From contig CANXME010002502.1 of assembly GCA_948144175.1 (NCBI GenBank), positions 124,001-188,000 of the forward strand: a DNA stretch of 64,000 nt, in the 5' to 3' direction. The position numbers and the translations under genes were made by a program. Positions 606 to 36,704 of this stretch are shown one piece after another. Position 1 is the first letter of the stretch; every line of letters starts with the position of its first letter. The notes beneath the pieces are model-generated. The model was not told where the DNA came from. It ran no database searches and worked only from the letters and a program-made list of their open reading frames with translations. This DNA comes from Closterium sp. NIES-65. Its lineage: Eukaryota; Streptophyta; Zygnematophyceae; Desmidiales; Closteriaceae.

Positions 606-3600
606 ATGGCGGCGGCGGATGCAGTGGCGGAGGCGGTAAGCGGGCTGTGGCCGCTCAATGAGGGGTCGCGAGCGAAGATCGTGGATCGCATCAGCACGAA
701 CCTCGTCAGCATATGCTTCTCCAAGGACAAGGTGTGTGCGACGAGGCGTGCGACAATGTTTGCGACGAGGCGTGCGACAATGCTTGCGACGAGAGACGAC
801 AGATCGACTCACCCACATGCGTCGAAGCGTTTGCAGGAGGGCCTTGTGTGGGTGAGGAGACGACTCTCGAGGAGGCGACAAGCCGTATACAAATGTGTCC
901 CAAGCGAATTCAGCTACGCACGTCGACGGCCCGTGCTGCTGCAGCTCGTTTTCTGCAATTCTCAACGGGTCAACGGTGTCAGCGGGTCAACGGGTCAACG
1001 CTGTCAACATTTTTTTGTCTCAATGTTATGCATGTACGCAAAAAATCCCTGCGTTATCCTCCTTTCTCGCTCATCCCTTCCCCCGATCCCAGTCACAGCG
1101 TTTGGGCCACGGTGTGGCGGGCAGCCTGGCGGAGACGTCACGATCTACGCACGGCACGCCAGCGCATCCCTTCCCCCCGCTCATTCCTCCCCCCTTCCCC
1201 CTCCCCGTTCTCCGCTCCCTCCTCCCTCCCGCCGATCCCACGCACCGGGTGGACGACAGCGTGGCGCGCAGCCTGGCGGAGAGGTTGAAGCTCTTCCCGC
1301 TTCCCCTTCCGCCCTCCGTCCTCCCCCCTCCGTCACCCTTCCCCCGCCCTCTTCCCCCCTCCCTCCGCTTTCCGCCCGATCTCAGTCGCAGCGGGTGGAC
1401 GCGCAGCCTGGCGGAGAGCATCGAGGCGGAGGCGGCACGACCTGAGCACGGCACGCCAGTGCCTCCATTCTCTCCCCTCACTCCTCCCCCTCCCTCTCCC
1501 CTCCGTCCCCCCTTTCCCCCCCCTCCCTTTTCCCGATCCCAGGCGCAGCGGGTGGACGACGGCGTGGCGCGCAGCCTGGCGGAGAGCATCGAGGCGGAGG
1601 CGTTCGCGGCGACGCAGGCGCGCGCGCAGGAGGGGGGCGCGGCGGTGAAGGGCAGCGCGCTGGTGATGATGTACGCGCGGCACGCGAGCGAGCTCATGGT
1701 CGACGCGTTTAAGAAGGAGCGGACGAAGGGGGGAGCGGGCGCAGCTGTGGAGGGAGGCGTTGAAGAGGTGAGCGTCGGTTGGGATGGGTGCGTGGGGGGG
1801 AATAGGGTTGGGGGGCGCTGGAGATGATGTACGCGCAGCACGCGAGCGAGCTCATGGTTGGCGCGTTCAAGAAGGAAAGGAAGAAAGAGGGAGCGGGCGC
1901 AGCTGCGGATGAGGGCGTTGAGGAGGTGAGTTGGGGGCTTAGGAGTGGGAGTGGGAGTGGGAGTGGGAGTGGGAGTGGGAGTGGGAGTGGGAGTGGGTTT
2001 GGCAGTGAGGCTGACGTTGAGGTTGCTTTCCCTGTCATGATGTACGCGCGGCACGTCAGCGAGCTCATGGTAGGCGCGTTCAAGAAGGAGCGCACCAAGG
2101 GGGGAGCGGGCGCAGCTGCAGAGGGGGGCGTTGAGGAGGTGAGCGGGGGGCTTGGAATAGAAGTGAGAGCGGAAATTGGCTGTGGTGATGGTATGCGCAG
2201 CATGCCAGCAACCTGTCGCTGGGCACGTTCCGCAAGGGGGAGTGCAAGTGCGGAAGGGCGCAGTCACGGATGGGGAGAGGGGGAGAGGGTGCGGGGGAAG
2301 GGGTTAACCACTGTTGATGATCTAAATACATCTCTTTGAGAGGGAGTGGGCCATGTATCTCGTTGAGCCTGAATCAAAATGCATTGAAGTTGCGAATGAG
2401 CTGCGTGTGGCATGTGTGCAAGCCCTCTCAACAGTTCTGTCCTGCTTTTGTTCTTTTCTGGCAGTTTGACATCTCTGGCGGCAAGAGGGAGGCCTTGACC
2501 ATGGAAGCCGCGGAGAAGCTTCTCGCGCCCTTGCTCAAGCCCAACAACGGCTGCAAGAAGGTGCCTCTTCCGACCCTCTCAATGCCTCCTCACCACACTC
2601 TACCTCTCTCGACCGTACTTGCTATACCCGTGCCTGCCACACCCATACCCGCTACACCCATACCCACTGCGTCACTTCACCAGTACTCTCACCCACCCGC
2701 ATGGTACCTGGCTTGACAATGCACCTGTACTCATGGTACCCATGTCGTCCTGTTACCCTGTTACCCATGTTCAGTGTCATCCTGTTACATTGTTTCCCTG
2801 CTACTGATTCATCCGTTACCCTGTTATCCAGTTGTTACAAATGTCTGCCCTGTAACCCTGTTACCTGGTAACCCTGTAACCCTGTGACTCTGTAACCATA
2901 CCCCTGTAACCCTTTTATCCTGTAACAGGTGAAGCTCAGCAGCAAGGCGTTCACGCTGGAGGCTGCTGACGTGGCGCACCAGGCGCTGACCAATGCGCAG
3001 GACACGCTGACGCATGCTGACCTCAGCGACATCATTGCCAGCCTACCGGTGGGTGGGAGGAAGGGATGGGGGAGGGGAAGGTGGAGGGGGGCGAGGGAGA
3101 AGGAGAGGGGGAAAGTATGCTTATGCCATACCTGTGCCCACGCCCATGCCATACCTGTGCCCATGCCCATGCCATACCTGTGCCCATGCCCATGCCATAC
3201 CTGTGCCCATGCCCATGCCATACCTGTGCCTGTCCCCATGCCTGCCCAGACTGACTGTGCCTGTGCTTGTGTCGGTGAGTGTGTCTGCCCGTGTTTGTGC
3301 CTTTGTCTTTGCCTGTGTCTGTGCATGCCGGGGCGTCTGTGCTTATATGGGGAGCAGGATTAGGCCCACAGCAGGTGATATCGAGGGCGCATCAGCGCTG
3401 GAGGGCCGATGGCTACCTGTGTTTCCTATCAAGGCGAACCCAACATCTGCACGCTGTTTTTGTGCCTGTGCCCATAGCTGTGCCTGTGCCCATAGCTGTG
3501 CCTGTGCCCATAGCTGTGCCTGTGCCCATAGCTGTGCCTGTGCCCATAGCTGTGCCTGTGCCCATAGCTGTGCCTGTGCCCATAGCTGTGCCTGTGCCCA

Positions 3601-36704: not shown

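What the first reader, a model, noticed from the sequence alone, without database searches (positions are those of the whole stretch)
606..36704. Introns of every multi-exon gene are built from partial copies of the flanking exon edges
In RanGAP, KEA and the DUF1499 gene, nearly every exon has one to seven truncated copies in the adjacent intron. Copies of an exon start retain the AG acceptor and copies of an exon end retain the GT donor. Both strands and three unrelated genes show it, while the intronless RING genes show only one 3'-end scrap. This points to a general process in this genome, duplication across exon-intron borders that lengthens introns and multiplies splice sites. Intron origin by duplication of AGGT-containing exon sequence has been proposed before; a genome that keeps doing so at existing borders would be new to me.
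Basis: partly seen in the sequence, partly recalled or inferred. Interest (0 to 1): 0.85.

Follow-up and report, generated by a model that had tools for sequence, protein, structure and literature searches.

The report
Exon edges duplicated into neighbouring introns
In several unrelated genes of a single-celled green alga (a Closterium), pieces of roughly 150 bases that straddle an exon border have been copied into the neighbouring intron at most of the exons examined; the copies still look like former protein-coding sequence, and what makes them is not known.

Summary
In RanGAP, KEA and DUF1499, exons against their own introns give 59 direct matches and 1 inverted, all 59 in an adjacent intron, from 15 of 22 exons. 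The window belongs to an 874-Mb assembly, by protein matches a Closterium. A homeologous region has the same copy number at 37 of 38 borders, including 20 of the 21 with copies. A KEA paralogue and 8 loci of an unrelated family (CCT chaperonins) show it too: 25 of 35 exon cores, 71 of 74 copies on the expected side. Units are about 150 b (median 156, n=63) and mostly run past the splice site (46 of 61): DNA-level tandem duplication. Survivor selection explains position and polarity, but not the scarcity in intron interiors and other DNA, nor differences concentrated at third codon positions (0.224 against 0.061), near 0.2 whatever the amino-acid decay, although decayed copies drift neutrally. 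I favour out-of-register exchange, partly between diverged homologues. Splice use is untested. 'Introns built from copies' is overstated: minisatellites fill more.

The parts
606..12388 (+). RanGAP gene, 11 exons: 606-731, 1549-1767, 2465-2560, 2929-3048, 4121-4255, 5023-5152, 5833-5958, 6162-6281, 9625-9689, 11266-11426, 12133-12388
   Evidence: in-frame 517-aa model, WPP and LRR Pfam, Closterium homologues
1103..1434 (+). three copies of the exon 2 start in intron 1
1815..2138 (+). two copies of the exon 2 end in intron 2
3367..4051 (+). three copies of the exon 5 start in intron 4 (two in a 128-b tandem unit)
4546..4594 (+). copy of the exon 6 start in intron 5
5191..5588 (+). three copies of the exon 6 end in intron 6
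5694..5751 (+). copy of the exon 7 start in intron 6
6405..6698 (+). two copies of the exon 8 end in intron 8
7153..9500 (+). five copies of the exon 9 start in intron 8, split by a large minisatellite
9762..10615 (+). seven copies of the exon 9 end in intron 9 (five in the homeologue; differs by one 222-b unit)
10789..10981 (+). two copies of the exon 10 start in intron 9
11472..11664 (+). two copies of the exon 10 end in intron 10 (a weaker one at 11862-11944)
17123..29924 (-). KEA (K+ efflux antiporter) gene, 6 exons: 29924-28443, 27374-27194, 25392-25310, 24296-23963, 20417-20236, 18391-17123
   Evidence: in-frame 1176-aa model, Na_H_Exchanger Pfam, homologues
28290..28404 (-). copy of the exon 1 end in intron 1; translated in the annotated protein P0121
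27436..27936 (-). three copies of the exon 2 start in intron 1
26626..27107 (-). three copies of the exon 2 end in intron 2
25478..25743 (-). three copies of the exon 3 start in intron 2
23772..23896 (-). copy of the exon 4 end in intron 4
19303..20180 (-). eight matches to the exon 5 end part in intron 5, some of them fragments, three within a 33-b array
18489..18776 (-). two copies of the exon 6 start in intron 5
30956..36704 (+). DUF1499 gene, 5 exons: 30956-31379, 32513-32609, 34889-35006, 35641-35710, 36460-36704
   Evidence: in-frame 317-aa model, DUF1499 Pfam, homologues
32004..32427 (+). three copies of the exon 2 start in intron 1
34535..34809 (+). three copies of the exon 3 start part in intron 2
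35067..35127 (+). copy of the exon 3 end in intron 3
16375..16437 (+). copy of the 3' end of the intronless RING2 gene (source 16197-16259): a gene-end copy with no splice site
44081..44144 (+). copy of the DUF1499 last-exon end past the stop codon, now behind the Copia element 36814-44064; 189 b from the stop with the element cut out

Best explanation
SHOWN: recurrent local tandem duplication at the DNA level of segments mostly 120-190 b long that straddle the edge of a coding exon. The copy is direct, mostly includes the splice site and some adjoining intron, and lies in the adjacent intron; arrays can change by whole units. INFERRED: (1) selection keeps only duplications after which the outermost splice sites (or the first stop codon) still give the old mRNA, so copies are exon edges on the correct side; (2) the duplications arise by out-of-register exchange seeded in exons, the conserved islands, partly between homologues whose coding sequences had already diverged by about 0.2 at third positions, which would explain both the scarcity in intron interiors and intergenic DNA and the coding-type difference between copy and exon; (3) once intronic, copies decay.
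For: Direct and adjacent only, 59 sense to 1 antisense. 46 of 61 alignments run >=6 b past the border, 36 of 61 >=20 b, 9 of 9 in the KEA paralogue. Flank similarity above every null comparison in 10 of 21 families. 63 families: median spacing 156 b, 48 within 100-200. 8 CCT loci: 71 of 74 copies on the expected side. Homeologue: same copy number at 37 of 38 borders, one 222-b array change. Intron-only local pairs 5 of 72, lying beside border copies by their coordinates; 4 pairs in 92 kb of other DNA. Third-position intercept 0.203 (CI 0.167-0.237), slope 0.35 on pos1+2, 60 families; neutral copies would give an intercept near 0. Decayed copies look neutral between homeologues: pos1+2 8/2145, pos3 3/1063, noncoding 96/24040. 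Recombination between sequences of different origin, checked by PCR, is reported for strain NIES-4550 of the same complex (PMC10407611 section 8).
Against: No donor homologue at 0.2 divergence was found: a RanGAP exon 3 search returned only two copies, 100 and 99% identical. The KEA exon 1 repeat has the same 51-aa spacing in predicted proteins of NIES-65 and Yama58-4 and differs from its exon by few residues in each: old yet conserved, which fits coding constraint better than a recent foreign copy followed by decay. Low-divergence copies show few pos1+2 changes between homeologues, 2 of 2040 sites, against 7 of 1017 at pos3. Flank homology was not above null in 11 of 21 families, and with exon parts masked flank pairs reappear in only about 5 of 21 families. 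The preferred unit length is not explained. Homeologue changes are few.
Confidence: 0.5

Rival explanations
1. Uniform neutral tandem duplication everywhere plus purifying selection and short ancestral introns: only border-spanning duplications survive next to exons, and the conserved exon arm keeps old ones detectable. No special process.
For: Predicts polarity, orientation and the CDS 3'-end copies. The two introns without any local duplication are short, 368 and 203 b. Decayed copies evolve neutrally.
Against: At the border rate, 11.0-16.5 intron-only and 16.7-25.0 intergenic families are expected before correcting for missed ones; 0 independent and 1 seen. Calibrated sensitivity for 147-b noncoding duplicates is about 0.5-0.8. 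It cannot give a third-position intercept of 0.2. Caveats: old unique intergenic DNA examined is only 5.6 kb, and two longer introns (KEA intron 3, 1013 b; DUF1499 intron 4, 749 b) have no border copy.
Confidence: 0.25
2. The copies are, or recently were, translated: splice sites in the copies are used and amino-acid selection keeps them coding-like.
For: Ratio of pos3 to pos1+2 divergence 3.69 (CI 2.97-4.65) where neutral copies allow at most about 2. In the window genes 2 stops where about 10 are expected, and indels 0.0095 per base in copies against 0.034 in flanks. 5 of 12 Closterium KEA-family proteins include exon-edge repeats. Low-divergence copies between homeologues: pos1+2 2/2040, pos3 7/1017.
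Against: Nearest spacings show no frame preference, 20, 21, 22 by remainder. Copies as a whole change at pos1+2 more often than exons, 10/4313 against 1/5909, p=0.001. Repeating part of a transporter helix or a chaperonin strand is structurally unlikely (inference). The models are predictions, and the other 7 of the 12 lack the repeats.
Confidence: 0.15
3. Assembly artefact: haplotype switches at conserved exons create false duplications.
For: Copy-exon divergence is near constant, as between two haplotypes.
Against: The published NIES-65 assembly, which this appears to be, used 110 Gb of long reads with N50 30 kb (PMC10407611 section 19), far longer than a unit. A separate contig repeats the copies. 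Predicted proteins of other strains contain such repeats. An array of 11 near-identical copies exists.
Confidence: 0.05

Closest known systems
Potato RdRp gene: tandem duplication crossing an intron-exon border (PMC4974935; abstract and passages seen)
   Same: A tandem duplicate with the 3' part of an intron and the 5' part of the next exon, the geometry of the acceptor copies here.
   Different: One event, which created a new intron; here more than half the borders tested, with no new intron in my models.
[quoted passage not shown] not read, known only through citing passages in PMC4974935)
   Same: Duplications within genes, some with introns.
   Different: The passages speak of segments containing entire introns; here partial edges, a preferred unit near 150 b and coding-type divergence.
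Intron gain from AGGT-containing exonic duplication (described in PMC3443670, passages seen)
   Same: Tandem duplication supplies splice sites.
   Different: That model makes an intron out of exonic sequence; here pre-existing borders are multiplied, and CDS ends without splice sites are affected too.
Copy-number variation and hybrid origin in the Closterium psl. complex (PMC10407611; abstract, passages, sections 8 and 19 seen)
   Same: Same organism group; duplication-rich genomes and recombination between lineages in NIES-4550.
   Different: Concerns whole genes; in what I saw, introns appear as mean lengths and counts.

Membership tests
Border-spanning local tandem duplication | copies direct, adjacent, including sequence on both sides of the border | tested here: met
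   46 of 61 cross by >=6 b; 9 of 9
Border-spanning local tandem duplication | whole unit homologous, not only the exon part | tested here: inconclusive
   above every null comparison in 10 of 21 families
AGGT intron-gain duplication | new intron bounded by duplicated exonic AGGT | tested here: not met
   copies carry intron flank and lie inside existing introns
Introner or transposon-derived sequence | the same element at many unrelated loci | tested here: not met
   the copies match their own gene's exons; cross-gene exon hits (8, 0 and 9 sense) were not examined one by one
Functional alternative exons | spliced into mRNA | not testable with these tools
   no RNA reads; annotated models only
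Functional alternative exons | units or copies keep the reading frame | tested here: not met
   nearest spacings by remainder 20, 21, 22; 30 of 35 indels in copies are not multiples of 3

The most novel reading that the evidence does not exclude
In a hybridising alga, exons act as islands of homology between diverged parental chromosomes. Exchange seeded in exons cannot be resolved in the unalignable introns and leaves the other parent's exon edge, about one nucleosome length of DNA, beside the resident one. Introns would then grow by collecting fossil exon edges of other lineages, recognisable by silent-site divergence.
Probability: 0.25. Interest if true: 0.88.

Novelty: new variant of a known kind. 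Interest (0 to 1): 0.75.

Why it matters
Single border-crossing tandem duplications are known. A genome in which more than half the exon borders tested carry them (21 of 38 in the window genes), with a preferred length and a coding-type divergence, is not described in anything I saw listed (searches; listings are capped and the library holds open-licence papers only). It offers a route by which introns lengthen and splice sites multiply, and perhaps a record of past exchange between lineages. It is also a practical hazard: predicted Closterium proteins contain translated repeats of exon edges.

Tried and rejected
Splice-targeted or RNA-templated copying: rejected because most copies carry intron flank and copies occur at CDS ends without splice sites. 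AGGT intron origin: wrong geometry. Whole-intron duplication: in RanGAP introns 6, 8 and 9 copies of the preceding exon's end lie before copies of the following exon's start (coordinates), the reverse of what it would leave. A recombination-chimera reading of RanGAP exon 5 was dropped after looking at the units: the identical flank reflects a recent copy-to-copy duplication. Listing repeats in strain proteins by gapped BLAST did not show them; ungapped tiles did. A first KEA-B model stuck on a copy and counted 1 hit; the corrected model is. Flanking ORFs of the contig: 5 of 10 matched retroelement families, 5 nothing. Viral contigs held no relative. An impression of constraint on copies in general weakened with more loci (copy pos1+2 10/4313 against noncoding 97/23857, p=0.10). 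The classes were defined partly from the same sequences, a mild circularity, and the low-divergence class rests on 9 changes. Rows dropped before counts: 3 CCT HMM matches taken as copies were not used as exon cores; 4 cores whose HMM stretch held a stop were left out of the codon counts; families with under 40 aligned exon bases were left out; homeologue alignments under 97% were left out. Eleven of the 74 CCT copies are one array. The spacing lists were typed in.

Full report
WHERE IT IS. The window lies at 124001-188000 of contig C2204 (207,396 b) of an 874-Mb assembly of 2,400 contigs. The best protein matches to RanGAP and KEA are from Closterium sp. NIES-65, both with a longest contig of 207,396 b, so I take the assembly to be that of NIES-65 (inference). 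The published NIES-65 assembly used 110 Gb of long reads with N50 30 kb (PMC10407611, section 19). A homeologous region on contig C95 (L003-L010) carries all three genes with open frames.

THE OBSERVATION. I built gene models by hand; all three read in frame with GT-AG introns and match Pfam families. The RanGAP model agrees with the annotated NIES-65 protein from exon 2 into exon 11. With exons as queries against their own introns, 59 sense matches of at least 32 bits appear against 1 antisense; every sense match lies in an adjacent intron; 15 of 22 exons are involved; 3,975 b of intergenic DNA give none. Exons of the other genes also match these introns (8, 0 and 9 sense; 11, 0 and 3 antisense); I did not examine those, and low-complexity sequence is my guess. 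By another measure, local direct duplication covers 0.658 of intron bases and 0.022 of intergenic bases, inverted 0.009 and 0.007 (short-period arrays above 20 b offset are included there).

ANATOMY. With intron flanks attached, 61 alignments at 22 borders: 46 run at least 6 b and 36 at least 20 b past the exon border; some of these overlap one another. AG is kept in 20 of 25 acceptor copies and GT in 23 of 25 donor copies that reach it. Distances between homologous borders cluster: 50 spacings, median 147. The nearest copy of each family from window genes, CCT loci and the KEA paralogue gives 63 values, median 156, 48 within 100-200 and 1 under 100. Global alignment of the intron part of units beats every null comparison in 10 of 21 families, so full-unit homology is shown in about half. 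Copy number is the same in the homeologue at 37 of 38 borders, 20 of 21 among those with copies; the exception is seven against five exon 9 end copies, one 222-b unit.

GENERALITY. KEA-B, a paralogue on C1945, has copies at 6 of 10 borders, all 9 crossing the border; 4 antisense hits there were not followed up. A family chosen before looking, PF00118 (CCT chaperonins), gave 93 matches. I fetched 8 loci, one of each homeologous pair; the first three because the table already showed overlapping ranges, the other five because they covered several exons. Of 35 exon cores 25 have copies; of 74 copies 71 are of the edge expected for their side (criterion: reaching into the 30% of the core at that end), with 2 antisense; the five loci not picked for overlaps give 14 of 22 cores and 34 of 35 copies. 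One CCT exon start has eleven near-identical upstream copies 122-124 b apart. For PF00133, two clusters on C946 and C1749 show the end of an exon repeated downstream; other overlaps are ambiguous, and no DNA could be fetched there.

NOT UNIFORM. After masking short arrays, the introns of the three genes hold 49 exon-intron pairs, 18 copy-copy pairs and 5 others, which lie beside border copies by their coordinates. In 92.2 kb of other DNA, much of it young retroelement, the same search gives 4 local direct pairs, one of them the RING2 3' copy; 21.5 kb more gives 1. At the border rate 11.0-16.5 intron-only and 16.7-25.0 intergenic families are expected before correcting for missed ones, against 0 and 1. 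Planted 147-b duplicates were found in 82-100 of 100, but real flanks alone reappear in only about 5 of 21 families, and calibrating on that puts sensitivity at about 0.5-0.8. The weak point is that old unique intergenic DNA is only 5.6 kb. Gene ends: 2 of 5 3' ends have copies, 0 of 5 5' ends.

THE CODING SIGNATURE. In the window genes, mismatches between copy and exon fall 0.087, 0.096 and 0.241 by codon position; 227 changed codons are synonymous where 99 are expected at random, 207 are not where 325 are expected, and stops are 2 where 10 are expected. One copy per family, 60 families: pos1+2 0.061 (227/3746), pos3 0.224 (418/1870), ratio 3.69 (CI 2.97-4.65); a neutral copy of a constrained exon allows about 2. 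The regression intercept is 0.203 and the slope 0.35. For the window alone the ratio is 2.78 with CI 1.99-4.15, only marginal; CCT gives 4.00. Between homeologues, copies as a whole change at pos1+2 10/4313 against 1/5909 in exons and 97/23857 elsewhere. Split by class, decayed copies look neutral (8/2145 and 3/1063) while low-divergence copies show 2/2040 and 7/1017. So the coding signature was acquired while the sequence was coding, or part of the copies is still constrained; both remain open.

MECHANISM. Selection for intact mRNA explains polarity. For the rest I favour exchange seeded in exons and partly between diverged homologues; hybrid ancestry with PCR-checked recombination is reported for NIES-4550 of this complex (PMC10407611 section 8). 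A hint, no more: a copy of RanGAP exon 5 encodes K where the NIES-65 and Yama58-4 exons have N and the Naga37s-1 and NIES-67 exons have K. Against it, the KEA exon 1 repeat is shared in spacing with Yama58-4 and conserved in sequence, which suits constraint better. Read-through translation is unlikely as a general rule because spacings ignore frame. The nucleosome comparison of the unit length is recalled knowledge, not a test.

LITERATURE. A single border-crossing tandem duplication is described in potato (PMC4974935, passages), and tandem duplication of exonic AGGT in a review (PMC3443670, passages). A Zygnema genome paper had nothing on this in the passages found (PMC9915684). Searches on Closterium genomes and introns, intron gain by tandem duplication, and partial exon duplication into introns listed nothing describing this pattern; I saw listings and openings of abstracts, the lists are capped, and the library holds open-licence papers only.

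Noticed in passing
7195-9088, 21213-23525, 33268-33653, 34158-34503 and others: Introns carry large short-unit tandem arrays (46% of intron bases by my masking) and intron lengths differ strongly between homeologues, for example RanGAP intron 8 3343 against 1424 b and KEA intron 4 3545 against 931 b.
   Followed up: partly
36814-44064: A copia-type element with 110-b LTRs differing at 1 base sits just past the DUF1499 stop codon; two further copia-type ORFs lie at 45686-51730 (-) and 52688-57286 (+).
   Followed up: partly
17123-29924: The annotated NIES-65 KEA protein (P0121, contig of the same length) contains translated repeats of exon edges, as do 4 of the 11 other Closterium KEA-family proteins checked.
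   Followed up: yes
L037 (C1794:173501-182500): Eleven near-identical copies of a CCT exon start, 122-124 b apart, upstream of the exon: a recent burst.
   Followed up: no
33762-33969: A 27-b minisatellite in DUF1499 intron 2 resembles by eye the acceptor and start of exon 3, as if a border copy had seeded it (not tested).
   Followed up: no
13651-14322 and 15479-16288: Two neighbouring RING-finger ORFs without introns; the annotated RanGAP model P0001 ends in residues that by eye come from RING1 DNA in another frame.
   Followed up: partly
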